This document shows positions 45,119 through 61,946 of a stretch of DNA of 64,000 nt, one piece after another. A model generated the notes under the pieces. The model worked only from the letters and a program-made list of their open reading frames with translations, had not been told where the DNA came from and did no database searches. Source of the stretch: Streptomyces coeruleorubidus. GTDB taxonomy: Bacteria; Actinomycetota; Actinomycetes; Streptomycetales; Streptomycetaceae. The stretch is from assembly GCF_028885415.1 (NCBI RefSeq), contig NZ_CP118527.1, positions 7,378,001 through 7,442,000 of the forward strand, in the 5' to 3' direction. Position 1 is the stretch's first letter. Every line of letters begins with the position of its first letter. The position numbers and the translations under genes are program-made.

Positions 45119-47655
45119 CCGACGTACGCAAGGGGCGCGTCCTGCCCGTCACCGACCTCTCCCTGGTGGTGCTCGTCGGCGCCTCCGGCTCCGGCAAGTC
45201 CACGTTCGCCCGCAGGCACTTCAAGCAGACCGAGATCATCTCGTCCGACTTCTGCCGCGGTCTCGTCTCGGACGACGAGAACGACCAGAGCGCCACCAAG
45301 GACGCCTTCGACGTCCTGCACTACATCGCGGGCAAGCGCCTCGCCGCGGGCCGCCGCACCGTCGTGGACGCGACCAGCGTGCAGCCCGAGGCGCGCCGTC
45401 AGCTGGTCGAGCTGGCCAGGCAGTACGACGTGCTGCCGATAGCCATCGTGCTCGACGTGCCCGAGGACGTGTGCGCCGAGCGCAACGCGGCCCGCACCGA
45501 CCGCGCGGACATGCCCCGCCGGGTCATCCACCGCCACACCCGCGAACTCCGCCGCTCCCTCAGGCACCTGGAGCGCGAGGGCTTCCGCAAGGTGCACGTC
45601 CTGCGCGGTGTGCGGGACGTCGAGCATGCCACCGTCGTCACCGAGAAACGCTTCAACGACCTGACCCACCTCACCGGCCCCTTCGACATCATCGGCGACA
45701 TCCACGGCTGCTCCGCCGAACTGGAGTCGCTGCTCGACAAGTTGGGCTACACGGACGGCGTCCACCCCGAGGGCCGGACCGCCGTCTTCGTCGGCGACCT
45801 GGTCGACCGCGGCCCCGACAGCCCGGGCGTGCTGCGCCGCGTGATGGCGATGGTGAAGTCCGGCAACGCCCTGTGCGTGCCCGGCAACCACGAGAACAAG
45901 TACGGCCGGTACCTGCGCGGCCGCAAGGTCCAGCACACCCACGGCCTCGCCGAGACCATCGAGCAGATGGCGGGCGAGAGCGAGGAGTTCACCGCCGAGG
46001 TACGGGAGTTCATCGACGGCCTCGTCAGCCACTACGTCCTCGACGGCGGCCGGCTGGTCGTCTGCCACGCCGGGCTGCCCGAGAGGTACCACGGCCGCAC
46101 CTCCGGCCGGGTCCGCAGCCACGCCCTGTACGGCGACACGACCGGGGAGACCGACGAGTTCGGCCTGCCGGTGCGCTACCCGTGGGCGGAGGACTACCGG
46201 GGCCGGGCGGCCGTCGTCTACGGCCACACCCCGGTTCCGGAGGCCACCTGGCTCAACAACACCATCTGCCTGGACACCGGCGCCGTCTTCGGCGGCAAGC
46301 TCACCGCGCTGCGCTGGCCGGAGCGAGAGCTGGTCGACGTACCGGCCGAGCGGGTCTGGTACGAGCCGGCGAGGCCGCTGCGCACCGAGGCCCCCGGCGG
46401 GCAGGACGGTCGCCCGCTGGACCTGGCGGACGTGCACGGCCGCCGGGTCGTGGAGACCCGCCACCAGGGCCGCGTCTCGATCCGTGAGGAGAACGCGGCG
46501 GCGGCCCTGGAGGTCATGAGCCGTTTCGCGGTGGACCCGCGGCTGCTGCCGTACCTCCCGCCGACGATGGCCCCGACCGCGACCTCGCATGTCGACGGCT
46601 ACCTGGAGCACCCGGCCGAGGCCTTCGCGCAGTACGCGCAGGACGGCGTCGCGCGGGTCGTGTGCGAGGAGAAGCACATGGGCTCGCGTGCGGTGGCCCT
46701 GGTGTGCCGGGACGCGGAGGCGGCCCGCAAGCGCTTCGGGGTGGACGGGCCGACCGGCTCCCTCTACACCCGCACCGGCCGCCCGTTCCTGGACGACGCC
46801 TCACTCACCGAGGAGATCCTCGACCGGCTGCGCACGGCGACCGGCGAGGCCGGCCTGTGGGACCACCTGGAGACGGACTGGCTGCTGCTCGACGCCGAGC
46901 TGATGCCCTGGTCGCTGAAGGCGTCCGGGCTGCTGCGGTCGCAGTACGCCGCCGTGGGTGCCGCGTCCGGCGCGGTGTTCCCGGGCGCGCTGGCCGCGCT
47001 GCGGGGCGCGGCGGCGCGGGGCGTCGACGTGACCGGACTGCTGTCCCGCACCCGCGAACGGTCCGCCGACGCCGCCGCGTTCACCGAGGCGTACCGCCGC
47101 TACTGCTGGACCACGGACGGCCTGGACGGCGTCCGCCTGGCACCGTTCCAGATCCTCGCGGTCCAGGGCCGCAGCCTCGCCGGACTGCCGCACGACGAGC
47201 AGCTCACCCTGCTCGACCGGCTCGTCGAGCACGACGGCAGCGGCCTGCTCCAGACCACCCGGCGGCTGTACGTCGACACGGGCGAGGCGGAGTCGGTCCA
47301 GGCCGGTGTCGACTGGTGGCTGGAGATGACCGGCCGCGGCGGCGAGGGCATGGTCGTCAAGCCGGTCGGCGCACTCGTCCGCGACACGCAGGGCCGCCTG
47401 GTGCAGCCCGGCATCAAGTGCCGCGGCCGCGAGTACCTGCGGATCATCTACGGCCCCGAGTACACCCGCCCGGAGAACCTGGCCCGCCTGCGCTCGCGGT
47501 TCCTCAACCACAAGCGCTCCCTGGCGATCCGCGAGTACGCGCTCGGTCTGGAGGCCCTGGACCGGCTGGCCGGGGGCGAGCCGCTGTGGCGGGTGCACGA
47601 GGCGGTGTTCGGGGTGCTGGCGCTGGAGTCGGAGCCGGTCGATCCGAGGCTGTGA
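45115..47655 (+). CDS. pnkp: Polynucleotide kinase-phosphatase-ligase Pnkp
   Basis: An 846-residue three-domain RNA end-healing and sealing enzyme. The kinase is N-terminal (Walker A GASGSGKST, residues 22-30). The metallophosphatase has GDIHG (about 194), GDLVDRGPDS, GNHEN (about 257), CHAG and GHTP. The C-terminal adenylyltransferase has the AMP-acceptor lysine K520 in EEKHMGSRAV, then DWLLLDAELMP and GEGMVVKP with QPGIKCRG. All catalytic motifs look intact. It repairs RNA cut by ribotoxins together with Hen1. ATG 45115 overlaps the hen1 stop. Confidence 0.95.
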   Translation: MTDVRKGRVLPVTDLSLVVLVGASGSGKSTFARRHFKQTEIISSDFCRGLVSDDENDQSATKDAFDVLHYIAGKRLAAGRRTVVDATSVQPEARRQLVELARQYDVLPIAIVLDVPEDVCAERNAARTDRADMPRRVIHRHTRELRRSLRHLEREGFRKVHVLRGVRDVEHATVVTEKRFNDLTHLTGPFDIIGDIHGCSAELESLLDKLGYTDGVHPEGRTAVFVGDLVDRGPDSPGVLRRVMAMVKSGNALCVPGNHENKYGRYLRGRKVQHTHGLAETIEQMAGESEEFTAEVREFIDGLVSHYVLDGGRLVVCHAGLPERYHGRTSGRVRSHALYGDTTGETDEFGLPVRYPWAEDYRGRAAVVYGHTPVPEATWLNNTICLDTGAVFGGKLTALRWPERELVDVPAERVWYEPARPLRTEAPGGQDGRPLDLADVHGRRVVETRHQGRVSIREENAAAALEVMSRFAVDPRLLPYLPPTMAPTATSHVDGYLEHPAEAFAQYAQDGVARVVCEEKHMGSRAVALVCRDAEAARKRFGVDGPTGSLYTRTGRPFLDDASLTEEILDRLRTATGEAGLWDHLETDWLLLDAELMPWSLKASGLLRSQYAAVGAASGAVFPGALAALRGAAARGVDVTGLLSRTRERSADAAAFTEAYRRYCWTTDGLDGVRLAPFQILAVQGRSLAGLPHDEQLTLLDRLVEHDGSGLLQTTRRLYVDTGEAESVQAGVDWWLEMTGRGGEGMVVKPVGALVRDTQGRLVQPGIKCRGREYLRIIYGPEYTRPENLARLRSRFLNHKRSLAIREYALGLEALDRLAGGEPLWRVHEAVFGVLALESEPVDPRL

Positions 47656-47811
47656 GCCGGATGCCGCTCAGTTCCGGCCAGGCTTGTCCCCCCTGGGGTG
47701 ATCCTGGCCGGACGTCGTCCTTCGGGTCCCATTCGTCCCTGGTTAACCGCTGGTTGCCGTGCTAACTTCGCTGGTCGGTCAGGCAGGTGAACCGACTCAG
47801 GGGGAAAGTCG

Positions 47812-49329
47812 GTGCAGACAGGTGCGGTGTTCGGCGAGTCCGGCGGCGAATCCGGACGGCAGCCGGACTTCGAGCTGCTGTTTCAGCTCACCGACCTCCT
47901 CTGCGAGCTGGGCTGCGTCGAGGACGCGCCGAGCCGGGTGCAGTTCGCCGGGCTGCTGGCGGGCCAGCTCCGCAGGCCGGTGGACATACGCGGCGTGAGG
48001 CTCCGTGAGGACGTGGTGAGTCTGGTGACCGCCGCGCTGAGCGTGGCGGGCGGGGAACACGTACTTGTCGGGGTGGTCCGCATCCTCGAAGGCGCCCCGG
48101 CCGGGGACGAACTCGCGCGGCTGATCGCCCCTGCCCCCGCCCTGGCCGGACCGCTGACCAAGGAGGACGAGAAGAGCGCCCGCGTCGCGCTCAGCCGCGG
48201 AGACCTGCCCGCCGCACGCTTACGGGACGGGCTGGCGGAGGAACTCGTCGGTCTCGACCTCCCCGACGGGCTCACCCCCGAGCAGCTCTTCTCGCACCTT
48301 CTCGAATGGAACGCGCAGGAGGACGGCCTGCCGCCGGTCGTCCTCCTCCTCGACCACGCGGCCCGTCTCGCCCGGACCGTCGAACACCGCCTCGCGCTGA
48401 CCGCGTGGGCGGACGACTGGGCCGTGCGCGCGGGACTGACCGCGCAGTTGGCGAAGCGCCGGGAGAGACGCGCCGGGGTGGTGTGGTCGCCCGACATCCC
48501 CCGCACCCTCGTCGTCGCCGTCGAACCGGCCCGGGACGGCAGCACGGACGTGGCCGTGCGGACCTGGACGAACGCGACCCCGGGCCGCTGGGACCCACGC
48601 CCCGGTGAGCCGGACACGATCCCCCTCGACGATCTCGGCCGAGCCGTGGACAAGGCGCTCCGGCGCGGCACCCAACTCTGGCTGGTGCCCCGCGAACCGG
48701 ACTCGAGCGGACTTCAGGAACCGCCTGCGTACATAGAGTTCGTACTTCCATACGACCTGCTGAACCACGATGTGGCGGGGTTGACGTTCGCCATCGGCGA
48801 CGGTGAGCCCACTCCGCTCGGTCTGCGGTACGGGGTGCATCTACGCAGCCTTGAACGCATGCGTACGGACAACGCCGTGGTCCGGCAGCAGTGGCAGCGG
48901 CGTTGGGCGGCTCTCAGGCAGCATGGGATCACGGTGCACGCCTGGAGAGAGGCGGACGCCCGGCGGCTGCGCGCGTGGCAGATCGCGCTCGCCGGGGAAT
49001 CACGGAGTACGGCAGTGCTCATGGACGCGCCGACCGGGGCGCCGGCCCTGGAGGCACTCAAAGCGGCGATCGCGGAGGGGATCGGACTGGCGGTCTGGGA
49101 CCGCAGGGGTGTGTTCATAGAGGAGAGGCGCGAAGTGGTGACCGCGGTCTTCGCGGCCGTCGCCATGCCCGTGCAGCTTCCTTCCGTCATTCACCGCATG
49201 CGTCTGAACGCCGAGAGCGGCGCGGAGGACGCGGTCCAGTACCTTGCCCGAAATGTCGGATTCATGTGGGATGACCCCACTCGAGTCGTCGACATGCACA
49301 TCACCGACCCAGACGATCTCGCCAGCTGA
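47812..49329 (+). CDS. VMAP protein with N-terminal EAD2 (vWA-MoxR conflict system)
   Basis: A 505-residue soluble protein. Residues about 19-107 (LLFQLTDLLCELGCVEDAPS and a long helical repeat) look like effector-associated domain 2. The C-terminal 220 residues match the VMAP-C pattern: YIEFVLPYDLLNHDVAGLTF, LGLRYGVHLRSLERMR, WQRRWAALRQH and a final GFMWDDPTRVV. The middle is a VMAP-M-type linker. In published vWA-MoxR ternary systems, VMAP links the MoxR ATPase and vWA protein to an effector that carries a matching EAD. The GTG start follows GGGGGAAAG. It heads a co-directional operon. Confidence 0.8.
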   Translation: MQTGAVFGESGGESGRQPDFELLFQLTDLLCELGCVEDAPSRVQFAGLLAGQLRRPVDIRGVRLREDVVSLVTAALSVAGGEHVLVGVVRILEGAPAGDELARLIAPAPALAGPLTKEDEKSARVALSRGDLPAARLRDGLAEELVGLDLPDGLTPEQLFSHLLEWNAQEDGLPPVVLLLDHAARLARTVEHRLALTAWADDWAVRAGLTAQLAKRRERRAGVVWSPDIPRTLVVAVEPARDGSTDVAVRTWTNATPGRWDPRPGEPDTIPLDDLGRAVDKALRRGTQLWLVPREPDSSGLQEPPAYIEFVLPYDLLNHDVAGLTFAIGDGEPTPLGLRYGVHLRSLERMRTDNAVVRQQWQRRWAALRQHGITVHAWREADARRLRAWQIALAGESRSTAVLMDAPTGAPALEALKAAIAEGIGLAVWDRRGVFIEERREVVTAVFAAVAMPVQLPSVIHRMRLNAESGAEDAVQYLARNVGFMWDDPTRVVDMHITDPDDLAS

Positions 49330-49345
49330 GCTAGGAGGCTTCGGC

Positions 49346-50437
49346 ATGAGCGCACAGGAACGGACGGCCGCGGACGACTGGCGCGTCTTCCACGCCACCG
49401 GGCGCCCGCAGGACGTCCCACCCGCGCTGCCGGACCCGCCGCCCTGGCGGAGGTTCCGCGGAGGCCCCGTCGAGGCCCCGCCCCCGGACGACGCCGAGGC
49501 CGCGCTGCGCCGCCTCGGGCCCGGTGGCCTCACGCCCCAGCTCGACGACGAGCAGATCGAGACGGTCAACGCCGCCCTGCTGCTGCGCCGCCCGCTGCTG
49601 GTCACCGGCCCTCCCGGCGTCGGCAAGTCGACGCTCGCGTACCTCATGTCGCGTGAGCTGGGGCTCGGCCGGGTACTCGAATGGAACGTCGTGAGTCGTA
49701 CCAGCCTGCGCGACGGCTTGTACGTCCACGACGCCATGGGCAGGGCCCAGGCCATCGCCGCCTGGCAGGCAGGGCTGCGGGACGCGGCACGGGCGGAGCC
49801 GGTGTTCGAAGAAGGCGAACAGGCCGTCAACCCCGCGACCGCGTCAAATGATCGTCAACTTGCGCCGGATATCGGCGAGTTCATTACACTGGGACCGCTG
49901 GGTACCGCCCTGCTGCCCTACGAACGGCCCCGGGTGCTGCTCGTCGACGAGCTCGACAAGAGCGACATCGACCTGCCGAACGACCTGTTGCACGTTCTTG
50001 AGAATGGAAGTTATGAGGTTCCGGAGCTGGTGCGTGACGCCGCGGACGCGGCGAGCGTGCACACCAGCGACCCGGGAGGCCGGGCCGTGGTGCGGAACGG
50101 ACGCGTCGAGTGCCGGGAGTTCCCGGTCGTGGTGATCACCAGCAACGGGGAGCGCGAATTCCCCGCCGCCTTCCGTCGCCGCTGTCTGCCGATGGAGATG
50201 CACACCCCCACCCGGGAGCAACTACTGGCCATGGTGGAAGGGCACTTGGGCCTGCGGCCGCGAGGCACCGAAGACCTCGTCGACCTGTTCGTTCAGCGGG
50301 TCCAGGCGGGCGGTGTCCACTCCCTCGACCAGTTGCTCAACGCTGTCCAGATGACTACTGCGGGTGGTTTCCAGGCTGACGGTGACGGGCGTAAGCTCGT
50401 CGAATTGCTGCTCCGCGACCTCGCGAAGGGCCGCTGA
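49346..50437 (+). CDS. MoxR-type AAA+ ATPase
   Basis: A 363-residue AAA+ ATPase of the MoxR group. The Walker A is TGPPGVGKSTLAYLMSREL (about 89-100), the Walker B VLLVDELDKSDIDLPNDLLH, sensor-1 VVVITSNGEREFP and the arginine-finger segment FRRRCLPMEM. The insert SRTSLRDGLYVHDAMGR is a group feature. ATG 49346 has GGAGG at 49334-49338. It is 16 bases downstream of VMAP, and its stop overlaps the next start by one base (TGATG), so the three genes are tightly coupled. It is probably the signal-processing ATPase of the system. Confidence 0.9.
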   Translation: MSAQERTAADDWRVFHATGRPQDVPPALPDPPPWRRFRGGPVEAPPPDDAEAALRRLGPGGLTPQLDDEQIETVNAALLLRRPLLVTGPPGVGKSTLAYLMSRELGLGRVLEWNVVSRTSLRDGLYVHDAMGRAQAIAAWQAGLRDAARAEPVFEEGEQAVNPATASNDRQLAPDIGEFITLGPLGTALLPYERPRVLLVDELDKSDIDLPNDLLHVLENGSYEVPELVRDAADAASVHTSDPGGRAVVRNGRVECREFPVVVITSNGEREFPAAFRRRCLPMEMHTPTREQLLAMVEGHLGLRPRGTEDLVDLFVQRVQAGGVHSLDQLLNAVQMTTAGGFQADGDGRKLVELLLRDLAKGR

Positions 50438-53400
50438 TGACCCGGGAGCGCGCATCCGGACTGGGCGACGGGGATCCCGTATCGGGATCGTCGCCGCCTC
50501 CTTCGGTGTACCCCGACCCCCTCGCGCGCGCGAACGAGCGCGAAGACCGGGTCCCGGCCGCTCCCGATCACTTCGTACCGCGCTGGCAGGAGTTCGCCGA
50601 CGCGGTGTGGCTCGCCGCCCACCGGAGCCGGTACGGCGGTCCCGGCGACGCCGCTCAGGAGGCGTCGGGACCGGCGGTGGAGGCCGCGGGCCCGCACGCC
50701 GAGGCCCTCGTGGGCCCGGAGGACACCGAGGTCGAACAGCAGTCCCGGTCACCGGTGTCCGACGACGCGCTCGACGGTCCGACGGCGGCCGGCGAGGAGA
50801 ATGCTTCTCCCGAGGCGACGCCCGCCGACCGCGCCCCCGCCGAGTCGATCCCCTCTGGTGACCGAACCGGATTCCGTGCCGCCGATCGTTTCTTGCCTCA
50901 CCCCGAAGGCCGCTCCACCCTGCACCTCGGGTCGCCGCTGCTGCCCCGGGCCGAACCCGACCTCTCCGGCCCCGGCCGCTTCACGGCCCTGCTCGCACGC
51001 GCCCTGCACCATCTGGCCCGCCGCATCCCGTCCCGCGACAGCCTGGAACTGGACGAGGAGACCACCGCCGAGCAGGGCCTCGCCGACGGGCTGTGGATGC
51101 CGTTTCTGCGGCCCGCCCGGGTCTCCGCCTTCGACCTGGTGCTGCTGCTCGACGACGCGCCCACGATGCGGATCTGGGAGGAGAGCGCCGCACGCCTGGC
51201 CCGCGCCGCCGAGCACAGCGGGGCCTTCCGCAGTGTGCGCTCGCTCCGCGTCACCGTCCCGCGCACCGGCACCGCCACTCTGCGCTGGTCCACGGGACGG
51301 GCCGTCGCCGACCCCGCGGAACTGCTGGACGGCCGGGGCAGCCGGATCTTCCTCGTCGTCACCGACGGACTCGCCCACGGCTGGGCCGCCACCGCCGCCG
51401 ACGAACTCCTCGGCCGGCTCGCCCACGCCGGCCCCACCGCCCTCGTCCACCTGCTGCCGCCGCACCTGCGCCACCGCTCCTCGCTCTATCCGTACCCGGC
51501 CGTCCTGGAGGCCGGCGGGTTCGGAGCCCCCAACGGCAGCCTCGGGCACTGGGCGCCGCCCGGCGGCCCCGATCCGATGCGGCCCCTGCCCGAAGCGGGC
51601 GACGGCTCCGTCGCCGTCCCGGTGCTCTCCCTGAAACCCGCTTCCCTCGCCGCCTGGTCCGATCTGGTCACCGGTGGGCGCGGCGTCCGGCGTTCGCTGC
51701 CCGTGGTGCTGGCAGGCACCCTGAGCAAGGGCGCGCCCGCTCCGGGTCTGCGCGCCCCGCGCCTCCCACGCGCCGCCACCGCCGCCGTACGGCGTTTCTT
51801 CAGTCTGGCCACTCCCTCCGCCCGCCGTCTCGCCACCCAACTCGCCGCCGTCCCTTTCGACTTCGACCTCGTCGAGCAGTTACGGCGACGCGTCATGCCG
51901 GAGACAGGTCCCGATCACCTCGCCGAGATCCTCATGGGCGGGCTGATCGACTGGGAGGGCGGAGGGGAGGGGCGCCCCGAGTTCGCCGAGGGCGTCCGGG
52001 AAGCCCTGCTGGCGACCACCACGCGCAGCCAACTCGCCCGCACGGTCAGTGTGGTGGGTGAGCTGCCCGCCGCGGGGGAGCGAGGCGTCGCCCTGCGTGC
52101 AGCCCTGCACGACCCGCTGCGGACCAGGCTGCCCGACCCCGCCGAACGCGGCTGGGCGCGGAGCGAACTGGCCGTGATGCGCGCCCTGTCGGGCCCCTAC
52201 TCCGACCGGGCCAGGCGCATCGAACCGAACCTGTCCAGGAACCCGCCCGCCCCGGCCGAACAGGTGGAGAACAGCGCGTCCGCCCAGCCACCCCCACAGG
52301 TGAATAACCCGGGCGAAACGACTCCATCCAGCCCAGCGGGCATCAACCCGGATTCGGGAATTCCCGATCCGACTGGAGAATCCGCGCCGTCTGAGACGGC
52401 CGGCGCGCAGCGACAACAGACCCCGGAGGCAGAGCCGCTCATGCAGAGCACCACGACCGCAACGCCGGCCCTACTGGTGAACGTCCCCATGCGTAACACC
52501 TCGTTCGTCGGCCGTCAGGCGCTGCTGAGGGCCGTGGAGGAGCAGCTCGCCGCCCAGGACACCGCAGCCGTGCTGCCCAACGCCCTGCACGGCCTCGGTG
52601 GCGTCGGCAAGTCACAGCTGGCGCTGGAGTACATCTACACCCATCAGCGCGACTACCGGATCATCTGCTGGATCCCGGCCGAGCGCGAGAGCCTCATCCT
52701 GGCCGCGCTGTCCTCCCTCGCCTCCCAGCTGGGTGTCGCCCCGGCCGGCCAGGACAGCCTGGGCGCCGCCGCGGCCAACACCGCCGTGCCCGCCGTACTG
52801 GAGGCGCTGCGCACCGGAACGCCGTACGACAACTGGCTGCTGGTCTTCGACAACGCCGAGGACATCGAGGCGGTGCGCGGCTACTTCCCGCACAACGGGC
52901 CGGGCAAGGTCATCGTCACCTCCCGGAACCGGGGCTGGGAACGGGTGGCCACCTCACTGCCGGTGAACGTCTTCGAGCGCGACGAGTCCATCGAACTGCT
53001 CCAGAAGCGCGCCAAGGACCTGCCCGGGGAGGACGCCGACCGGCTCGCCGAAGCGCTCGGCGACCTGCCGCTCGCCGTGGAGCAGGCGGGAGCCTGGCTC
53101 GGCGTCACCGGCATGGAGGTCGACGAGTACCTCGACCTGCTCGCCCAGCGCAGCCCGGAGATCCTCGAGATCGAGCAGAGCCCCGACTACCCGGTCTCGG
53201 TCGCCGCCGCCTGGGACATCTCCCTGGAGCGCATCAGGGAGAACAACCCGGGCGCCCGTCAGCTTCTCGACATCTGCGCCAGCATGGCCCCCGAGCCGAT
53301 CCCGAGGTCGATCCTGCGCAGCAGCCGAGGCGTCAACATCACGCCGCAGATCGACCCGATGCTGCGCGAGCCGATCAAACTGAACCGGGCCATCCGCGAC

Positions 53401-54963
53401 CTCAGCCAGTTCTCCCTGATCAAGGTCGACCCGCGCGCGGGCACCCTGCAGATGCACCGCCTCCTCCAGACCGTGCTCCTCGCCAAACTGAGCGAGGAGG
53501 AACGCGAGAGGATGCGGGACGCAGCCCATCAGTTGCTGTCCGCCGCCAACCGCGGCCCCTTCGGATCCTCCCAGGAGTGGCGCGACTACCAGGCGCTGCT
53601 GCCCCACGTTCTCGCCTCCCAGGCGGTGACCAGCACGGACCCCTATGTGCGTGACCTGGTCTACGACACCATGTGGTTCCTCTACTACTGGGGCGACCAC
53701 GAGAACGCCGCTGCCTTCGGCCGGCAGGCGTGGAGCGCCTGGCTCGCCGCCTCGGGCGAGGACGACATCTATGTCATCCGGATGACCAAGGGCTTCGCCT
53801 TCCTGCTGCGCCAGGTGGGCCAGATCACCGAGTCGATCCCGCTCACCGAAAAGGCGCTGGAGGTCTCCCGCCGGGTGCAGGTCGAGCCGGAGGAACTCAT
53901 CGACTCCCTGTGCGAGATGTCCGATGCCCGCCGGTACCAGGGCCGCTTCCAGGAGGCGCGGGATCTGGGCAAGGAGGCCACCGAACTGGCCCGGTCGCTC
54001 TTCGGCCCCGACGACCCGGCCACCCTGCGGGGCAGCCACAGCTGGGGCGTCGACCTGAGACTGTGCGGGGAGTTCAGGGAAGCGCTGCCGCTCGACCAGG
54101 AAACCGCCCGCCAGCGTGACATGCTGTTCGGAGAGACCAGCTTCTTCACGCTCAACACCCTGCACTGCGTCGGCATCGACATGCGGGAGGCGGGCCGGTA
54201 CCCCAAGGCGCGCGAATGGCAGGAGGACGTCTACCGCCGGGCGCTCACCGCCCTCGGTGAGAAGCACCCCCTGACCTTGCGTATCGCCCGTGACCTCGGA
54301 GTCTGCCGCCGCCGGGACGGAGACCTCTCCGAGGGTGCCAAGCTCGCCGAGGAGACCCTGCGCAACTTCAAGTCCCGCTACGGCGACGAGCACCTCGACT
54401 CGCTGACCACGGCGACCAACGTCTGCGTCGACCGCCGTCTGGCCGGTGACCTGGAAGGCTCGCTCCGGATCGCGGAGTCCACCGTGGCCCGGCTGGTGCG
54501 GCGCCTCGGCGGAGACCACGCGCACACCCTGGTGACCCGTGCGAACCTGGCCGCCACCCAGCGGGCCCTGGGCTCCCTGGACACCGCGCAGGAGCTGGAG
54601 GACGACGTGGTGCGCCGGCTGAGCGACACGGTCGGGGCGCACCACGTCATCACCCTCACCGTCGGCATCGGCCAGGCCAACACCGCCTACGCTCGGCTCG
54701 ACTTCGAGCGGGCGCACGAGATCGACTCCGCCAACCTGCCGCTGCTGACCGAGGTGGCGGGCGGGGACCACCCCCTCACCCTCTCCTGCACGTCCAACCT
54801 CGCCCTCGATCTGCGGGGTCTCGGGCGGGGTGACGAGGCGGACGTGCTCCAGCGCAAGGCGGTGGAGGGCTTCGCCGCAGTGCTGCGCAACGACCACCCC
54901 TGGCTCCAGGCCGCCCGCCAGCGCCGGCGCATCGAGTGCGACCTGGCTCCCATGCCCATGTGA
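50437..54963 (+). CDS. SAV_2336/vWA-like, NB-ARC and TPR protein (FxsT-like)
   Basis: A 1508-residue multidomain protein. Residues about 1-165 are disordered and acidic. Residues about 185-590 match the SAV_2336 N-terminal region, with a vWA-like core in which the metal site reads LVLLLDDAPTMRIWEE (near 233), so the DxSxS motif is degenerate. From about 685 a STAND/NB-ARC NTPase follows: TSFVGRQALLRAVEEQL, Walker A LGGVGKSQL (about 718-726), LVFDNAEDIEA (Walker B) and LPLAVEQAGAWLG. From about 1050 to the end are tetratricopeptide repeats (EDHAHTL-type units repeated about every 42 residues). This architecture is that of FxSxx-system TPR proteins. It likely senses and couples to MoxR. Confidence 0.85.
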   Translation: MTRERASGLGDGDPVSGSSPPPSVYPDPLARANEREDRVPAAPDHFVPRWQEFADAVWLAAHRSRYGGPGDAAQEASGPAVEAAGPHAEALVGPEDTEVEQQSRSPVSDDALDGPTAAGEENASPEATPADRAPAESIPSGDRTGFRAADRFLPHPEGRSTLHLGSPLLPRAEPDLSGPGRFTALLARALHHLARRIPSRDSLELDEETTAEQGLADGLWMPFLRPARVSAFDLVLLLDDAPTMRIWEESAARLARAAEHSGAFRSVRSLRVTVPRTGTATLRWSTGRAVADPAELLDGRGSRIFLVVTDGLAHGWAATAADELLGRLAHAGPTALVHLLPPHLRHRSSLYPYPAVLEAGGFGAPNGSLGHWAPPGGPDPMRPLPEAGDGSVAVPVLSLKPASLAAWSDLVTGGRGVRRSLPVVLAGTLSKGAPAPGLRAPRLPRAATAAVRRFFSLATPSARRLATQLAAVPFDFDLVEQLRRRVMPETGPDHLAEILMGGLIDWEGGGEGRPEFAEGVREALLATTTRSQLARTVSVVGELPAAGERGVALRAALHDPLRTRLPDPAERGWARSELAVMRALSGPYSDRARRIEPNLSRNPPAPAEQVENSASAQPPPQVNNPGETTPSSPAGINPDSGIPDPTGESAPSETAGAQRQQTPEAEPLMQSTTTATPALLVNVPMRNTSFVGRQALLRAVEEQLAAQDTAAVLPNALHGLGGVGKSQLALEYIYTHQRDYRIICWIPAERESLILAALSSLASQLGVAPAGQDSLGAAAANTAVPAVLEALRTGTPYDNWLLVFDNAEDIEAVRGYFPHNGPGKVIVTSRNRGWERVATSLPVNVFERDESIELLQKRAKDLPGEDADRLAEALGDLPLAVEQAGAWLGVTGMEVDEYLDLLAQRSPEILEIEQSPDYPVSVAAAWDISLERIRENNPGARQLLDICASMAPEPIPRSILRSSRGVNITPQIDPMLREPIKLNRAIRDLSQFSLIKVDPRAGTLQMHRLLQTVLLAKLSEEERERMRDAAHQLLSAANRGPFGSSQEWRDYQALLPHVLASQAVTSTDPYVRDLVYDTMWFLYYWGDHENAAAFGRQAWSAWLAASGEDDIYVIRMTKGFAFLLRQVGQITESIPLTEKALEVSRRVQVEPEELIDSLCEMSDARRYQGRFQEARDLGKEATELARSLFGPDDPATLRGSHSWGVDLRLCGEFREALPLDQETARQRDMLFGETSFFTLNTLHCVGIDMREAGRYPKAREWQEDVYRRALTALGEKHPLTLRIARDLGVCRRRDGDLSEGAKLAEETLRNFKSRYGDEHLDSLTTATNVCVDRRLAGDLEGSLRIAESTVARLVRRLGGDHAHTLVTRANLAATQRALGSLDTAQELEDDVVRRLSDTVGAHHVITLTVGIGQANTAYARLDFERAHEIDSANLPLLTEVAGGDHPLTLSCTSNLALDLRGLGRGDEADVLQRKAVEGFAAVLRNDHPWLQAARQRRRIECDLAPMPM

Positions 54964-54979
54964 CGCGAGCGCCGAACGA

Positions 54980-55016
54980 CGGCCCGCCGCCCGGGAACCC
55001 TCCCGGCGGCGGGCCG
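54980..55016 (+). terminator. Strong GC hairpin after the TPR gene
   Basis: A stem of 16 base pairs with one bulged base (left arm CGGCCCGCCGCCCGGGA, 54980-54996) and a 4-base loop follows the stop by 16 bases. There is no long T run, as is common in Streptomyces. It divides the locus into two possible transcription units. Confidence 0.65.
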
Positions 55017-55095
55017 CTTCCGTTTGCGAGGCTTCAACTTCCCCGCAATATGGGTAAGTTGACTATCACAAGAGCAATCGGGTCACGGGGGGCGC

Positions 55096-56271
55096 ATGAC
55101 GGCGGTCGTCTTCGTCCATGGGACCGGGGTTCGCGAGCCGGGCTTCACCGCGCTGGTGGGGCGTGTGACGGCCGGACTGGCCGCACAGCGCGACGGGCTT
55201 CGCGTCGTCCCCTACAACTGGGCAGCGGCACACGGTGCCACGCTTGCGGCCGGCGGAGCGAGCCTGCCACCCCGGGTCGGCACCACGCGGGGTCTCGGCG
55301 AAGGCCCGGCGGGGCCGGATCCGAGCGACGAGACGACTGCGGCATGGGCCGCCCTCTACGCCGACCCGTACGCCGAACTGGCCCTGGCCGCCGCCGGATC
55401 CGGTCCGGCCGTCGAACGCCCGCCCGGTTCCGTACCGCCGCAGCAGCGGGTACGGACACAGCTCACCGCACTCGCCGCCCAAGGGGACGCGCCAGGTGCC
55501 GAGTTGGGTCCCGGGCTGGCCCGCGCCGCCGCCGATCTGGCCGCCCACCCCCTGCTCGGCCCCGCCGCCGACGCCCTCGCCCCGGCGGACCTCGCCGTTC
55601 TCGCCGCCCGCTCCCTGGCCGCCCGCCTCATCGCCGACGCCCTCGACGCCGACTCCCCGCTCGTTCCGGTCGGCGAGACCCGTGACGCCGTCACCGACCG
55701 GATCGCCGAGGCCCTCGGAGCACCGGCCCGGGGCACGGAGCGGGGGCTGCGCTCCTACCTGCTGCGCACAGCCGGAGCCGTGGCCTCGCGCGCCGTCGAG
55801 CGCCGCCGGCGTGTCCTCACCGAGGCCGCCCACCCCGCCGCCGGTGACATCCTGCGCTACCTGAGCCGGGGTGAGGCCTTCCGGGAGGGCCTGCGCACCC
55901 TCGTCGCCGGCCTGGAGCCGCCCGTCGCCGTGATCGGCCACAGTCTCGGCGGCATCATCGCCCTCGACACGCTGATCTCCGCCCCGCTGCCGCAGGTAGG
56001 GCTCCTGGTGACGGCGGGCTCCCAGGGGCCCTTCCTCTACGAGTCGGGCTCCCTGCCGTCCCTCGAACACCCCGCGCCCCTGCCGTCGCACGTCCCCGCC
56101 TGGCTGAACCTGTACGACCCGCGCGATCTGCTCGGATATCTCGGCGCGGGACTCTTCCCGGGCCGAGTCACCGATGTCGCCGTCGACAGCGGTCAGCCGT
56201 TCCCCGCAGCGCACAGTGCCTACTGGACGAACCCCACCGTGTACCGCCACATCGTGGACCACCTGCCGTGA
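55096..56271 (+). CDS. Alpha/beta hydrolase of the conflict locus
   Basis: A 391-residue soluble hydrolase. The first strand VVFVHGTGVREPGF carries the HG oxyanion motif and the nucleophile elbow is IGHSLGG (serine near residue 283), with LLVTAGSQGPF after it. The middle 180 residues form a long helical lid. The final His of the triad is probably in the last 40 residues (PAAHSAYW). The substrate is unknown. ATG 55096 has ACGGGGGGCG ahead. It overlaps the caspase gene by 4 bases (GTGA), so the two are made together, perhaps as a toxic effector pair. Confidence 0.82.
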   Translation: MTAVVFVHGTGVREPGFTALVGRVTAGLAAQRDGLRVVPYNWAAAHGATLAAGGASLPPRVGTTRGLGEGPAGPDPSDETTAAWAALYADPYAELALAAAGSGPAVERPPGSVPPQQRVRTQLTALAAQGDAPGAELGPGLARAAADLAAHPLLGPAADALAPADLAVLAARSLAARLIADALDADSPLVPVGETRDAVTDRIAEALGAPARGTERGLRSYLLRTAGAVASRAVERRRRVLTEAAHPAAGDILRYLSRGEAFREGLRTLVAGLEPPVAVIGHSLGGIIALDTLISAPLPQVGLLVTAGSQGPFLYESGSLPSLEHPAPLPSHVPAWLNLYDPRDLLGYLGAGLFPGRVTDVAVDSGQPFPAAHSAYWTNPTVYRHIVDHLP

Positions 56272-57395
56272 CCGCTCCCACGCCGCCCGTCGACCCGGCC
56301 CGGGTGCACGCCCTGATCGTCGGGATCGAGGCGTACGAGGCCGGGGACGCCTGGCGGCTGCCCGGGCCCGCACGCGACGCCGTACGGTTCTGGCGACTGC
56401 TGCGGGACGCGGGGGTTCCGGAGTCCCGACTGCGGCTCCACTTGGCCCCCTTGCCGTCGTACGACCCACAAGTCCCGTTCGAGCGCGCGGACCAGGCGAC
56501 CCTGCGCCGGGTGCTGGTTCGCGAACTGTCCGCGGCCCAGGGCGACATGCTGTGGGTGTGGTGGGGCGGGCACGGCGTGCTGGACCGGGCCGGGCGGCTG
56601 CGGCTGTTCTGCGCGGACGCGGGCGTCGCCGACAAGGTGGGCATCGACCTGGACTCCGCGCTCGCCCGGTACGCGGGCGACGCCGTGCCCGGTCTGCGCG
56701 AGCAGATGTGGATCGTGGACGCCTGCGAGACCTTCGAGGAGGATCTGGCGTTCCGGGAGGCGCTGCCCGCCGACGCCCTGCCCGTGGGCCGGCCCAACCA
56801 TCTGCACCGGCAGACCGTGCTGCGCGCCGCCGGCCGGGGCAGGGCGGCGGCCAACGACCCCGTCCGTGCCACCGGCCTTTTCTCCGACGTCCTGCTCGGT
56901 CTGCTGGCCGACCGGGCGGCCGTTCTGCCCGCGCCGCCCGATCCGGAGGAACTGTTTCCGGCCGTTCGGGCGCGCATCGCGTCCCTCAGGGAAGAGGGCC
57001 GTACTCTTCAGCATCCCGAGATCCGGCTCCAGGGTCCCGACCGTACCGAGACCCTGCCCCCGGCCGGACCGCCCGCGGCGCCGCGTCCCCTGATGGCGAT
57101 GCAGCGAGCGGTGGAGGCCCTCCTCGCCTACTCCCTGATGAACGACCCGGACGAACGGCAGACGGTCGTCGCCGCGCTGAACCCCCGTGTCGCAGCCGTA
57201 CTGCGCCGCCACAGCAGGGCACGCACCGACGTCGTCAACATCCTCGGCGGCCTCGCCCGGCGGGACCCGGAGGCACTGTGGGACCTGTTCGACGCCGTGG
57301 TGGCTCTCGATGACGATCCGAAACTGAAGGAAGAACTCGCCGCCGCCCTGGCCGAGTTGGCAGCCGCGACGGGGCAGCGGCGTGATCGGCGATGA
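56268..57395 (+). CDS. Caspase-like protease with C-terminal EAD2
   Basis: A 375-residue cysteine protease of the caspase/CD clan. The first strand ALIVGIEAYEA, the catalytic H102 in WWGGHGVLD and the catalytic C153 in IVDACETFEE are intact. Residues about 278-367 form an effector-associated domain like that on VMAP (MQRAVEALLAYSLMNDPDER, RARTDVVNILGGL), so the protease could be recruited by the VMAP protein through like-like contacts. GTG 56268 overlaps the hydrolase stop by 4 bases. Activation would probably cleave host proteins or kill the cell. Confidence 0.83.
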   Translation: MTAPTPPVDPARVHALIVGIEAYEAGDAWRLPGPARDAVRFWRLLRDAGVPESRLRLHLAPLPSYDPQVPFERADQATLRRVLVRELSAAQGDMLWVWWGGHGVLDRAGRLRLFCADAGVADKVGIDLDSALARYAGDAVPGLREQMWIVDACETFEEDLAFREALPADALPVGRPNHLHRQTVLRAAGRGRAAANDPVRATGLFSDVLLGLLADRAAVLPAPPDPEELFPAVRARIASLREEGRTLQHPEIRLQGPDRTETLPPAGPPAAPRPLMAMQRAVEALLAYSLMNDPDERQTVVAALNPRVAAVLRRHSRARTDVVNILGGLARRDPEALWDLFDAVVALDDDPKLKEELAAALAELAAATGQRRDRR

Positions 57396-57492
57396 TCAGT
57401 GGCGTGATCGTACGGTTTTCGCTCCGGGGGGTATTGGCCATGATGGAAAGACACGGGGCATCGCGTGCCACCGTGCGAGAAGGGGGAGCACC

Positions 57493-57729
57493 TTGGACCA
57501 GCCGCCCGTTCTGCACCACGCCGGAGCCGCCGCACCTGAACCGGCCGTCGCCATGGCGGGGACCGACGTCTGGGAATCCGATCTGGCGGACCTCGCGGCG
57601 CTGCCCCTGAGCGCCGTGGACGGTCTCCCCACCCTGTCCCCCACCACGCGCCTGCTGACCGAGGTGCTGCGTGCCCGCAGCAGCATGAGGAGCGGTGAAG
57701 GAGGAGGCTCGGGCGCCCGAGCCGACTAG
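57493..57729 (+). CDS. Short peptide, putative substrate of the HExxH enzyme
   Basis: A 78-residue peptide. Its leader-like part DVWESDLADLAALPLSAVDG resembles the DLxxVPLxxL motif of FxSxx-COOH-type precursors. The C-terminal part (SPTTRLLTEVLRARSSMRSG) lacks the FxSxx ending. The TTG start follows GAAGGGGGAGCACC. It sits between the caspase gene and the HExxH gene, about 100 bases from each, as expected of a peptide modified by the adjacent hydroxylase. The assignment is by context and motif resemblance only. Confidence 0.6.
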   Translation: MDQPPVLHHAGAAAPEPAVAMAGTDVWESDLADLAALPLSAVDGLPTLSPTTRLLTEVLRARSSMRSGEGGGSGARAD

Positions 57730-57822
57730 CCGCCGACCGTCCCGACGGCAGAGCCCCGGTGCGACACCCGCACGCGCACCGGGGTCCCCGCATGTCCGCC
57801 AACCGACCGGAGGCCCGCGACG

Positions 57823-59514
57823 ATGACCAGCGAGCAGCACCTCGCCCCACTCCGCATGCCGGACCGGCTCTTCGCGGAGCTGGCCGCCGGAGGTGGCTCG
57901 GCAGCGGCCGTCGCCTTCCTCGAACGAGCGGAGCGCGCAAGGCGGTTGCTGCTCCTGCGCACCCTCCTCGACCACCTCGACGCCCTGCCCGCTCCTCTCA
58001 CCCCGGTCGCCGAAGCCTGGCGGGTACTCAAGGAGGCGGCCGAGAAGTCGCCCGAGCCGGTCGAACGCCTGTTGCTGGCCCCGGCGACCGGCGGCTGGAT
58101 CTCCCACATGCTGCGCCGGGTGCAGGGCACGGCGACCGGGCCGCCGCTGTGGGCGGAGGCGGGCCACCTGTGCGCGCTGGCCCTCTCGGCCTCCTTGCAC
58201 GCGGGCACCGAGACGGCCCTCGACGTGCCCCTCACCAGCGGGCGGTTGCACCTGCCCGGACTCGGGATGATCCAACTCCCCGATGCGAGAACGGGCCTGG
58301 CGGTCGGCCGGGCCACGACGGCCGGGGGAGAGCTGACGGTCACCGGGCCGGGCGGCACGACCGGCTCGGTACGGGTGACCTGCCGTCCGCTGACCCAGCG
58401 TGCCGACGCCGACGGGGGCACCTGGCTCCCGCTGCGCACCCTCACCCACACCGGCCCCGACGGCACGGCCCCCGTCACCGTCGTACTCGAAGACCTCGAC
58501 CCCTACCGCGACCTCGACGACCACCTGCCCCCCGCCCGGCTCGACGAGGAGGAGGCACAGGAGTGGCAGCGGTTGTTCGGCGAGGCCGCGCGGATCCTCG
58601 CCCGCCCGGGCATACCGGGCCCCGGGCGGGTCGACCCCGCCATGATCCGGGCGATCGTGCCCTTCGGGCGCACCGCCGTCAGCCCGCCCCCGCCCCCTTT
58701 CGTGCAGGTGTCGGCCTCCAGCGGTGACTCCTTCGGCGGCATGCTCATCGTCCGTCCGGCCTCCGCGCTCGCCCTCGCCGAAACCCTGGTGCACGAGCTT
58801 CAGCACAGCAAACTCGCCGCCCTCCTTCACCTGTTCCCGCTGCTGGAGGACGACCGGGCGGAGCGCTACTACGCTCCCTGGCGCACCGACCCCCGCCACC
58901 TCACCGGCCTGCTGCACGGCGCGTACGCCTTCACCGGCGTCGCCGGTTTCTGGCGGGACCGGCTGGCCGGTGCGGAGGGGAGTGAGGCGGTCGAGCGGGC
59001 CGCTTACTTCTTCGCCCTGCGCCGCCTGCAGAGCCGCCTGGCCGTGCGCACCCTGCTGACCAGCGGCCGTCTGACCGTGCCGGGCCGCGCTCTCGTATCC
59101 GGCCTCGCCCGCACGCTCGACGGCTGGCTGCGCGAGCCGGTCCCGCACGCCGCCCTCACCCGGGCCCGTACGGCCGCCGCGCTGCACCGCACCGAGTGGC
59201 GGCTGCGCAACGTCGCCCCGCCCGCCTCGGGACACGGCGGCCCCCGCTTCCGCCCCGACCGCACCTCCTGGCCCGACGTGCGCACGCACGCCTTCGCCGA
59301 CCGCCCCGCCGCTCCGCACACCGCAGACGAGTACCTGGCCGCCGGGCAGGCGGCCGCCGCGCTCGCCCGGTACGCCGGACAGCTGGCTTCCGACCCCGCC
59401 GAGCCGCACGCCCTGGCCGGCTGGATCGTCGCCCGGGCCGTGCTCGACCCGGGCCGGGCGACGCGGCGCATGCTGGCCCGGCCGGAGCTGCTCCAGCCGC
59501 TGCCCAGCGGCTGA
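57823..59514 (+). CDS. HExxH peptide beta-hydroxylase-like protein
   Basis: A 563-residue protein of the HExxH-motif putative peptide modification family (aKG-HExxH-type). The metal motif is HELQHSKLAALLHLF (near residue 326), preceded by LIVRPASALALAETLV. The N-terminal 250 residues form the family's leader-binding-like region and the C-terminal part is helical. Related enzymes use iron and 2-oxoglutarate to hydroxylate RiPP precursors, often with the FxsB radical SAM enzyme, which is missing here. ATG 57823 has GGAGG ahead. It is the last gene of the locus. Confidence 0.8.
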   Translation: MTSEQHLAPLRMPDRLFAELAAGGGSAAAVAFLERAERARRLLLLRTLLDHLDALPAPLTPVAEAWRVLKEAAEKSPEPVERLLLAPATGGWISHMLRRVQGTATGPPLWAEAGHLCALALSASLHAGTETALDVPLTSGRLHLPGLGMIQLPDARTGLAVGRATTAGGELTVTGPGGTTGSVRVTCRPLTQRADADGGTWLPLRTLTHTGPDGTAPVTVVLEDLDPYRDLDDHLPPARLDEEEAQEWQRLFGEAARILARPGIPGPGRVDPAMIRAIVPFGRTAVSPPPPPFVQVSASSGDSFGGMLIVRPASALALAETLVHELQHSKLAALLHLFPLLEDDRAERYYAPWRTDPRHLTGLLHGAYAFTGVAGFWRDRLAGAEGSEAVERAAYFFALRRLQSRLAVRTLLTSGRLTVPGRALVSGLARTLDGWLREPVPHAALTRARTAAALHRTEWRLRNVAPPASGHGGPRFRPDRTSWPDVRTHAFADRPAAPHTADEYLAAGQAAAALARYAGQLASDPAEPHALAGWIVARAVLDPGRATRRMLARPELLQPLPSG

Positions 59515-59623
59515 GCGGGGGCGGCCCGGCCCACGCTGATTGTCGTCAGGCGGACACAAACAAGAGTTCGCCGAAACGCGCGAGCAGCGCGTCAACAGGC
59601 GCTGTGATGGTCAGGATGGAGGC

Positions 59624-60847
59624 ATGGCTTACCACGTCCATTCCGAGGCCGGGCGGCTGCGCCGCGTCATCCTGCACCGGCCCGATCTCGAGCTCAAAAG
59701 GCTCACCCCCAGCAACAGGACCTCGCTGCTCTTCGACGACGTGCTGTGGGTGCGCAGGGCCCGCGCCGAGCACGACGGGTTCGCCGACGTGCTGCGCGAC
59801 CGGGGCGTCACCGTCCACCTCTTCGGTGACCTGCTGGCCGAGGCCCTTGAGGTCCCGGCGGCCAGGGCCCTCGTACTGGACCGGGTCTTCGACGAGAAGG
59901 AGTACGGCCCGCTGGCCACCGACCATCTCAGAGCCGCCTTCGAGCACCTGCCCGCGGCGGAACTGGCCGAGCTCCTGGTCGGTGGCATGACCAAGCGCGA
60001 GTTCCTCGACGTGCACCCGGAGCCGACCTCGGTGCGCTTCCACGTCATGGAGCTGGACGACTTCCTGCTGGGCCCCCTGCCCAACCACCTCTTCACCCGC
60101 GACACCTCCGCGTGGATCTACGACGGGGTCTCCATCAACGCGATGCGCTGGCCCGCCCGGCAGCGCGAGACCGTGCACTTCGAGGCGATCTACCGGCACC
60201 ATCCGCTGTTCCGCGACGAGACATTCCACGTCTGGTCCGAGGGGCAGGCCGACTACCCGTCCACCATCGAGGGCGGGGACGTCCTCGTCATCGGCAACGG
60301 CGCGGTGCTCATCGGCATGAGCGAGCGCACCACGCCCCAGGCCGTCGAGATGCTCGCGCACAAGCTGTTCGCCGCCGGTTCCGCGGAGACGATCGTGGCC
60401 CTCGACATGCCCAAGCGGCGGGCCTTCATGCACCTCGACACGGTGATGACGATGGTCGACGGCGACACCTTCACCCAGTACGCGGGGCTCGGCATGCTCC
60501 GCTCGTACACCATCGAACCGGGCGTCGGCGAGAAGGAGCTGAAGGTCACCGACCATCCGCCGGAGCACATGCACCGCGCGATCGCCGCCGCGCTCGGCCT
60601 GAACGAGATCCGGGTGCTGACCGCCACCCAGGACGTGCACGCGGCCGAACGCGAGCAGTGGGACGACGGCTGCAACGTCCTGGCCGTCGAACCCGGTGTC
60701 GTGGTCGCCTACGAGCGGAACGCCACCACCAACACCCACCTGCGCAAACAGGGCATCGAAGTGATAGAGATCCCGGGCAGTGAGCTGGGGCGGGGCAGGG
60801 GCGGGCCGCGGTGCATGAGCTGCCCGGTCGAACGGGAGCCCGTATGA
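59624..60847 (+). CDS. arcA: Arginine deiminase
   Basis: A 407-residue cytoplasmic enzyme converting arginine to citrulline and ammonia. The family motifs [46 protein letters not shown] and the catalytic Cys near the end (C397 in PRCMSCPV) are all present. ATG 59624 has GGAGG immediately before. An ornithine carbamoyltransferase follows, so citrulline can be turned over to carbamoyl phosphate. Carbamate kinase and the arginine antiporter are not in the window. Confidence 0.95.
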
Positions 60848-60860
60848 GCACCCGCATCTA

Positions 60861-60887
60861 CGTATAGGCATGCCAACTTTCGTATAG
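60861..60887 (+). promoter_or_regulatory. Direct repeat CGTATAG before the carbamoyltransferase gene
   Basis: CGTATAG occurs at 60861-60867 and again at 60881-60887, exactly 20 bases apart, in an AT-richer stretch 50 bases before the start codon. It could be a regulator site on one face of the helix. It does not match the ArgR box closely, so the regulator is unknown. Confidence 0.5.
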
Positions 60888-60938
60888 TATTCCAGGAGTC
60901 CTGTCCGTCCCCGTACCGCCGTATCCCTGGAGCGCCCC

Positions 60939-61946
60939 ATGGCGACAGTCCCGACCGCCCTCGCCGGCCGCCACTTCCTCAAGGAGCTGGACTTCACCGA
61001 GGAGGAGTTCCGCGGTCTGGTCGAGCTGGCCGCCGAGCTGAAGGCCGCCAAGAAGGCCGGGACCGAGACGCAGTACCTGCGGGGCCGGAACATCGCGCTG
61101 ATCTTCGAGAAGACCTCCACCCGTACCCGCTGCGCCTTCGAGGTCGCGGCCGCCGACCAGGGCGCCTCGACGACGTACCTCGACCCGTCCGGCTCGCAGA
61201 TCGGCCACAAGGAGTCGGTCAAGGACACCGCGCGGGTGCTGGGCCGGATGTACGACGGGATCGAGTACCGGGGCGACAGCCAGCAGAATGTGGAGGAGCT
61301 GGCGGCGCACGCCGGTGTGCCCGTCTACAACGGGCTCACCGACGACTGGCACCCCACCCAGATGCTCGCCGACGTGCTGACCATGACCGAGCACTGCGCC
61401 AAGCCGCTGACGGAGACCGCCTTCGCCTACCTGGGCGACGCCCGCTTCAACATGGGCAACTCCTACCTGGTCACCGGCGCCCTGCTCGGCATGGACGTGC
61501 GTCTCGTCGCCCCGAAGGACTACTGGCCGGCCGAGGAGGTCGTCGACCGGGCCCGCGCCCTCGCCGGGACCAGCGGCGCCCGCATCACCCTCACCGAGAC
61601 CCTGGACGAGGGCGTCCGTGGCGCCGACTTCGTCGCCACCGACGTCTGGGTCTCCATGGGTGAGCCGAAGGAGGTCTGGGACGAGCGCATCACCGCCCTG
61701 GCCCCGTACGCCGTGACCATGGACGTCCTGCGCGCCACCGGCAACCCGGACGTGAAGTTCCTGCACTGCCTGCCCGCCTTCCACGACCTCGGCACCAAGG
61801 TCGGCCAGGAGATCCACGCGGCCCACGGCCTGGAGTACCTGGAGGTGTCGGACGAGGTCTTCGAGTCGGCGCACTCCGTCGTCTTCGACGAGGCGGAGAA
61901 CCGTCTGCACACGATCAAGGCAGTGCTGGTCGCGACGCTCGGCTGA
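60939..61946 (+). CDS. argF: Ornithine carbamoyltransferase
   Basis: A 335-residue transcarbamoylase. Carbamoyl-phosphate binding [12 protein letters not shown], the HPTQMLAD segment and the ornithine/zinc-type loop [11 protein letters not shown] are intact. The enzyme makes or cleaves citrulline. Adjacent to arginine deiminase it probably serves the catabolic (arcB) direction, although sequence alone cannot separate the anabolic and catabolic forms. It has its own promoter region with a CGTATAG repeat. Confidence 0.95.

What the first reader, a model, noticed from the sequence alone, without database searches (positions are those of the whole stretch)
47812..59514. vWA-MoxR-type conflict system joined to a peptide-modification module
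Seven co-directional genes combine EAD2-VMAP, MoxR ATPase, SAV_2336/NB-ARC/TPR protein, alpha/beta hydrolase, EAD2-caspase, a short leader-like peptide and an HExxH hydroxylase. Published vWA-MoxR ternary systems have VMAP, MoxR, vWA and an effector. Published FxSxx systems have a TPR-NTPase, a precursor and a radical SAM enzyme. Here the vWA role and the FxSxx TPR role appear merged in one 1508-residue protein and both effector types stand side by side. I infer a defence or self-killing island.
Basis: partly seen in the sequence, partly recalled or inferred. Interest (0 to 1): 0.85.

Follow-up and report, generated by a model that had tools for sequence, protein, structure and literature searches.

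The report
Streptomyces conflict island with peptide-modifying arm
Seven neighbouring genes in a Streptomyces chromosome look like an internal alarm or self-destruct system that also makes a small modified peptide; this type of island was described in 2020, but its peptide enzyme may trim and cap the peptide's tail by oxidation, which has not been tested.

Summary
The seven genes are real, co-directional and domain-confirmed. They behave as one unit: the order VMAP, MoxR, vWA/NB-ARC/TPR ... HExxH recurs in all 29 loci (window included) not cut by contig ends, from 34 of 392 Streptomyces genomes with a close HExxH relative. Its flanks, Pnkp and arginine deiminase, lie under 300 bases apart in 40 of 102 genomes; here 11.9 kb lies between. 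This precursor ends in ARAD. The hydrolase-caspase pair accompanies the peptide module in 25 of these 29 loci. New here: 53 of 55 distinct precursors end in [A/G]-R-A-[D/E], and the published "metallopeptidase" is an aKG-HExxH enzyme. Two Pseudomonas enzymes of that family oxidatively remove a C-terminal ARMD and leave an amide, needing a small first residue. I propose oxidative tail removal here; untested. Predicted folds fit a vWA (moderately) and a caspase (well). Defence or self-killing remains inference. New member of a known kind with a cheap biochemical test.

The parts
47812..49329 (+). VMAP: EAD2 + VMAP-M0 + VMAP-C (third component, presumed sensor)
   Evidence: Pfam EAD2, VMAP-M0 and VMAP-C over gathering scores
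49346..50437 (+). MoxR-type AAA+ ATPase (longest ORF from 49244; ATG at 49346 lies 16 nt after the VMAP stop)
   Evidence: AAA_5 4.8e-6; N-terminal PPWRRF fits the published VMAP-system MoxR motif PsWRxa
50437..54963 (+). 1508-aa vWA (SAV_2336 domain) fused to AP-ATPase (NB-ARC) and TPR repeats
55096..56271 (+). alpha/beta-hydrolase, presumed partner of the caspase
   Evidence: HSLGG and H373 invariant in 17 of 17 aligned sequences; Pfam hits below threshold
56268..57395 (+). caspase-fold peptidase with C-terminal EAD2
   Evidence: PADLOC caspase 1.4e-12, EAD2 2.4e-9; H102 and C153 invariant in 21 of 21; model matches MALT1 paracaspase, E 2.1e-9
57404..57446 (+). conserved non-coding element upstream of the precursor (promoter-like: GTGATCGNACGG, spacer, CATGATGG)
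   Evidence: seen in most rows of a 22-row upstream alignment, not in all; the only match of the pattern in the genome is this one, none for the reversed control
57493..57729 (+). 78-residue precursor peptide ending ...GSGARAD-COOH
   Evidence: SD plus TTG start, leader motif ESDLADL; 53 of 55 distinct precursors end in [AG]RA[DE]
57823..59514 (+). aKG-HExxH-type peptide oxygenase (HELQH)
   Evidence: TIGR04267 166.8 bits, cut-off 40; HExxH and APWRxDPR invariant in 30 of 30 aligned; profile matches PDB 22nu 1.9e-75 and ChlH 8s5f 4.4e-18
47656..59539 (.). whole unit between the Pnkp stop and the ADI start
   Evidence: Pnkp-ADI gap under 300 bases in 40 of 102 genomes with both genes on one contig, 11887 bases here

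Best explanation
A VMAP-type MoxR-vWA ternary conflict island of the RxD-peptide class. Shown by computation: gene content, order, domain families, conserved catalytic residues, predicted folds. Inferred: VMAP senses a trigger; the MoxR ring remodels the vWA protein and releases its AP-ATPase/TPR effector half; the caspase is docked on VMAP through the second EAD2, with the alpha/beta-hydrolase as its partner. In parallel the HExxH enzyme binds the precursor through its ESDLxDL leader and acts on the C-terminal [A/G]-R-A-[D/E]. I propose that it hydroxylates the alpha-carbon of the Ala or Gly, removes the tetrapeptide oxidatively and leaves a C-terminally amidated peptide that acts as an intracellular signal or toxin. 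My estimates: ternary conflict-type island 0.9; aKG oxygenase rather than simple peptidase 0.8; acts at the tail 0.6; oxidative removal with amidation 0.4; defence or self-killing role 0.6.
For: Domains and order. Linkage: 58 of 103 strong HExxH matches (of all classes) in 121 Streptomyces genomes lie within 15 kb of a listed SAV_2336 domain; rough chance 0.6% per match. Tail: 53 of 55 distinct precursors end in [AG]RA[DE]; Arg is written with five codons and Asp and Glu with two each, while the linker before it varies, so the protein sequence is what is kept. Chemistry precedent: the aKG-HEXXH enzymes PosC and PflC remove a C-terminal ARMD and leave an amide; in PosC variants Gly is partly cleaved, Val and Gln are hydroxylated and Ser oxidised without cleavage (PMC12636437). 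EAD2 was found only in VMAP and the caspase protein genome-wide. The vWA model matches the MIDAS domain of midasin, a MoxR-clade vWA system by the paper; Foldseek's first hit is a chain of a NorQD complex. The caspase model matches MALT1. The cluster diverges more than its flanks: best-segment identity to L024 is VMAP 56%, vWA 61%, HExxH 70%, Pnkp 89%, ADI 94%.
Confidence: 0.6

Rival explanations
1. The HExxH protein is a zinc-type metallopeptidase that hydrolytically releases a C-terminal peptide, as Kaur 2020 (citing Haft and Basu 2011) proposed.
For: Zincin-like HExxH motif invariant in 30 of 30; published interpretation; PflC hydrolyses off ARMD when the leader is missing.
Against: Family is TIGR04267 aKG-HExxH, far over its cut-off, and its profile matches the ChlH structure; the characterised members that I read of oxidise; hydrolysis of full-length PflA was not seen without oxygen.
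Confidence: 0.2
2. The enzyme only beta-hydroxylates one or more residues, and the [AG]RA[DE] tail is a recognition or degradation tag.
For: Characterised aKG-HExxH enzymes hydroxylate Asp, His, Gln, Phe or Pro; the last residue is Asp or Glu in 53 of 55.
Against: The last residue swaps between D (17) and E (36), while the residue at -4 is always small in tailed precursors, which is what alpha-carbon cleavage favours.
Confidence: 0.4
3. The island is a RiPP biosynthetic cluster whose product acts outside the cell, and the ternary machinery is regulatory rather than for defence or self-killing.
For: Precursor and maturation enzyme are conserved and most of the compared loci share an upstream element of their own.
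Against: No transporter or secretion gene was recognised in the unit in the window; the Na/H exchanger found inside the island in some relatives is absent from this window's unit.
Confidence: 0.2
4. Two neighbouring systems that merely sit together (a ternary system and a separate peptide cluster).
For: L032 keeps the precursor and a full-length HExxH match without the ternary core upstream. Caspase and hydrolase were not found in 4 of 29 loci. The HExxH family also occurs without a listed vWA domain nearby (45 of 103; the list of vWA places was capped).
Against: All 29 loci not cut by contig ends keep VMAP-MoxR-vWA/APTPR with the HExxH gene, at several chromosomal sites; the unit's edges match the Pnkp-ADI gap.
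Confidence: 0.1

Closest known systems
VMAP-ternary (MoxR-vWA) system with RxD-type peptide-processing module (Kaur et al. 2020, PMC7159879)
   Same: VMAP-MoxR-vWA order; EAD on VMAP with a second copy on a peptidase encoded in the same cluster; AP-ATPase/TPR fused to vWA; small precursor with C-terminal RxD; HExxH gene; caspase with alpha/beta-hydrolase neighbour.
   Different: Here the HExxH enzyme is read as an aKG oxygenase, not a peptidase; the tail is defined as [AG]RA[DE]; peptide module and caspase pair occur together in 25 of 29 loci.
PflC/PosC aKG-HEXXH RiPP systems of Pseudomonas (PMC12636437)
   Same: aKG-HExxH enzyme and a precursor ending in a conserved A-R-x-acidic tetrapeptide.
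   Different: No Gln run, Gly common at the first tail position; the published clusters as described hold an MNIO-nitroreductase, a GNAT and transporters, not ternary machinery. Enzyme sequences were not compared.
FxSxx-COOH / FxsB systems
   Same: FxSxx_TPR family protein (NF040586, 795 bits); HExxH protein hits the FxsBH model below its cut-off (102 against 225).
   Different: No FxSxx tail, no radical SAM domain recognised in the unit, HExxH motif intact.
ChlH/ChlBH radical SAM-fused aKG-HExxH enzymes
   Same: HExxH profile matches the chain named ChlH, 8s5f (4.4e-18).
   Different: No radical SAM domain in gene 7; precursors were not compared.

Membership tests
VMAP-ternary MoxR-vWA conflict system | Gene order VMAP, MoxR, vWA | tested here: met
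   Window, and 29 of 29 loci not cut by contig ends, window included
VMAP-ternary MoxR-vWA conflict system | VMAP-C domain | tested here: met
   PF20028 3.9e-31
VMAP-ternary MoxR-vWA conflict system | vWA domain with two conserved aspartates | tested here: met
VMAP-ternary MoxR-vWA conflict system | MoxR N-terminal motifs WxhapG and PsWRxa | tested here: inconclusive
   PPWRRF fits the second; WRVFHATG only resembles the first (read, motifs)
VMAP-ternary MoxR-vWA conflict system | EAD on VMAP with a second copy on an effector or peptidase encoded nearby | tested here: met
   Two EAD2 found in the genome, in VMAP and the caspase protein
RxD-type peptide-processing module | Small precursor with C-terminal RxD, HExxH gene, AP-ATPase/TPR fused to vWA | tested here: met
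   ARAD tail, TIGR04267, and NF041121 with NF040586 in one protein; definition
aKG-HExxH peptide oxygenase (TIGR04267) | Profile over curated cut-off and intact HExxH | tested here: met
   166.8 against 40 bits; invariant in 30 of 30
aKG-HExxH peptide oxygenase (TIGR04267) | aKG- and Fe-dependent oxidation of a peptide | not testable with these tools
   needs biochemistry
PflC/PosC oxidative-cleavage class | C-terminal A-R-M-D tail on the precursor | tested here: not met
   Similar but not identical: [AG]RA[DE] in 53 of 55
PflC/PosC oxidative-cleavage class | Gln run before the tail | tested here: not met
   Variable, mostly Gly-rich linker instead
PflC/PosC oxidative-cleavage class | Enzyme in the same subfamily as PosC | not tested
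   PosC sequence not at hand
FxSxx-COOH system | FxSxx C-terminus on the precursor | tested here: not met
   Tail is ARAD
FxSxx-COOH system | Radical SAM/SPASM enzyme FxsB in the cluster | tested here: not met
   None recognised in the seven proteins or ten flanking ORFs scanned
Caspase superfamily | Caspase fold with His-Cys dyad | tested here: met
   GGHG and DAC invariant in 21 of 21; MALT1 2.1e-9; NCBIfam caspase_w_EACC1 below cut-off, 38 against 140

The most novel reading that the evidence does not exclude
The island's HExxH enzyme oxidatively removes the C-terminal [A/G]-R-A-[D/E] tetrapeptide of the precursor and leaves an alpha-amidated intracellular peptide. That would make peptide alpha-amidation, known from hormones and a few RiPPs, the output arm of a bacterial caspase/AP-ATPase conflict system.
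Probability: 0.35. Interest if true: 0.78.

Novelty: new member of a known kind. Interest (0 to 1): 0.5.

Why it matters
About 20% of actinobacterial VMAP-ternary systems carry a peptide-processing module (PMC7159879), whose product that paper only predicts to be a toxin or signal. The tail motif and the re-reading of the enzyme turn that question into a one-experiment test. If the chemistry holds, the peptide's end becomes predictable, a first step to finding its target. The Pnkp-ADI site gives a natural with/without comparison between Streptomyces species.

Tried and rejected
FxSxx membership: rejected (tail and radical SAM tests not met). Caspase as the protease that cuts the precursor at its conserved arginines: no support, since the EVLR[AS]R region looks the same in loci with and without the caspase in the cluster. 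Pnkp/Hen1 RNA repair and arginine deiminase as functional parts: rejected, as they lie under 300 bases from each other in 40 of 102 genomes and neither was found in the stretch held (about 1.6-2 kb each side) around 12 of the 29 loci. EAD2 co-evolution within loci: 29 loci given, L033, L076 and L086 dropped because only one copy was found in the stretch held; in the other 26 mean identity is 0.223 within against 0.212 between, 7 of 5000 permutations as high; small and confounded by relatedness, not used. PDB sequence search with the vWA profile: nothing up to E 1; with the hydrolase profile: weak hits only, best 0.015. Search outside Streptomyces: 6 of 296 phylum genomes match at 1e-60, 5 of them in this genus; the other was not followed. 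SAV_2336 as a search word: no paper. Not-in-print statements rest, open-licence PMC only, listings. An AdpA-like site in the upstream element: recalled consensus, not kept in all rows, dropped.
Full report

One unit. A close HExxH relative (E up to 1e-90) was found in 34 of 392 Streptomyces genomes, this one included (a first-look filter precedes scoring). I fetched the other 33 loci. Five are cut by contig ends and were dropped (L071, L078, L087, L096, L101). In the remaining 29, window included, VMAP (cut at the edge of the fetched stretch in some), MoxR, vWA/NB-ARC/TPR and the HExxH gene follow in this order and direction. The hydrolase-caspase pair lies between in 23, downstream in 2 (L082; G010, seen in L115), and was not found in 4 (L079, L080, L083, L098). 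Of 36 named loci, 22 match VMAP; all 22 keep the order, and 13 of them have the pair while 9 do not (L016 and L027 of these 9 hold caspase fragments). One named locus, L032, keeps the precursor and HExxH gene between Pnkp and the deiminase with caspase remnants but no core.

Edges. In 121 Streptomyces genomes, Pnkp was found in 111 and the arginine deiminase in 119 (118 of these entered). With both on one contig in 102, the gap is under 300 bases in 40, 300-1500 in 22, 1.5-9 kb in 33, 9-20 kb in 3 (11,887 here) and more in 4. Seventeen of the 29 loci have Pnkp or the deiminase in the stretch held; 12 do not, and the flanks of those 12 fall into several contexts by DNA comparison. Five of those 12 belong to genomes whose Pnkp-deiminase gap is under 300 bases (G018, G028, G058, G064, G114).

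The peptide. A scan with the leader motif (not the tail) over the window and the loci L004-L053 and L070-L102 gave 74 hits and 55 distinct precursors; 53 end in [AG]-R-A-[DE] (20 GRAE, 16 ARAE, 15 ARAD, 2 GRAD), the others in GGEG and DDRM. The scan missed two candidates seen earlier: in L049 the tail is SQAH and in L052 KRFD. These sequences are related, so the count is not of independent events. In the 29-locus sample 28 have the tail and L077 does not (with the window). The tail codons vary synonymously, and a TTG start after a Shine-Dalgarno sequence is the rule. The roughly 110 bases upstream share an element in most of 22 aligned rows, including islands whose HExxH proteins are about 50% identical (L044, L050, L100); rows L029, L033, L045 and L048 were anchored wrongly, L042 lacks it and L043 gave no row. 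The spacer is 19 bases in the four rows that I counted by eye (window, L016, L030, L050). The pattern's only match in the genome is the window's own. Four more distant HExxH loci (L059, L060, L061, L065) have leader-type candidates with other tails.

The enzyme. It is an intact member of TIGR04267 with HExxH and an APWRxDPR stretch invariant in 30 of 30 relatives, related to PDB 22nu and ChlH. Literature read: PMC12636437 (abstract, introduction, results, discussion; passages) shows PflC and PosC hydroxylating Gln and oxidatively removing ARMD; PMC13060819 (abstract and passages) shows Pro hydroxylation. A PosC Ala-to-Gly substrate is partly cleaved and a Val one is not. The restriction of tailed precursors to Ala or Gly at that position is the pattern this chemistry would leave. 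This is likeness of mechanism, not membership: the PosC sequence was not compared, and the Gln run and exact ARMD are absent.

What is known. PMC7159879 (abstract; sections 8, 9 part 1, 23 and 30; passages) describes VMAP-ternary systems, EAD coupling, the caspase-hydrolase pairing, and peptide-processing modules with FxSxx, RxD, acidic or FtsH-associated precursors; with RxD or acidic peptides the AP-ATPase/TPR is fused to the vWA protein. That is this island. Its HExxH protein was there called a metallopeptidase. PMC8195603 was seen in passages only. Searches for the combination listed nothing newer that I could recognise as describing it.

Mechanism. Sensing by VMAP, remodelling by MoxR-vWA, recruitment of the caspase by EAD2 and release of the AP-ATPase/TPR effector follow Kaur et al.'s proposal and are not shown here. 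Support: EAD2 was found only in these two proteins of the genome. Against: the copies are only 22% identical, and VMAP keeps EAD2 in L080, where no caspase gene was found in the stretch held. Amidation of the peptide is my own addition and is the sharpest test.

Score. Interest 0.5.

Noticed in passing
43583-47655 and 59540-61946: Hen1 and Pnkp RNA-repair genes upstream, arginine deiminase and ornithine carbamoyltransferase downstream; the Pnkp-deiminase gap varies from under 300 bases to over 20 kb in Streptomyces.
   Followed up: partly
L110, L111, L112, L114: Other cargo at the Pnkp-deiminase site (2-8 kb); one L112 ORF (FVVHGRDEE...) looks defence-like to me, but no family search was run.
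   Followed up: no
L072:7305-8720 (-), L016:7602-8981 (-): A Na/H exchanger gene (PF00999) on the opposite strand sits inside the island in a number of relatives, not in the window.
   Followed up: partly
L115 (G010): HExxH gene followed by a second NB-ARC/TPR match and then hydrolase and caspase: a partly duplicated island.
   Followed up: no
L032: Reduced island: Pnkp, then caspase remnants, precursor and HExxH gene, no VMAP, MoxR or vWA match.
   Followed up: no
L035, L086: HExxH gene matched in two pieces with extra DNA between them.
   Followed up: no
57404-57446: Conserved non-coding element before the precursor; possible own promoter.
   Followed up: partly
L008, L009: Two nearly identical island copies on different contigs of one S. 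olindensis assembly; duplication or assembly artefact.
   Followed up: no
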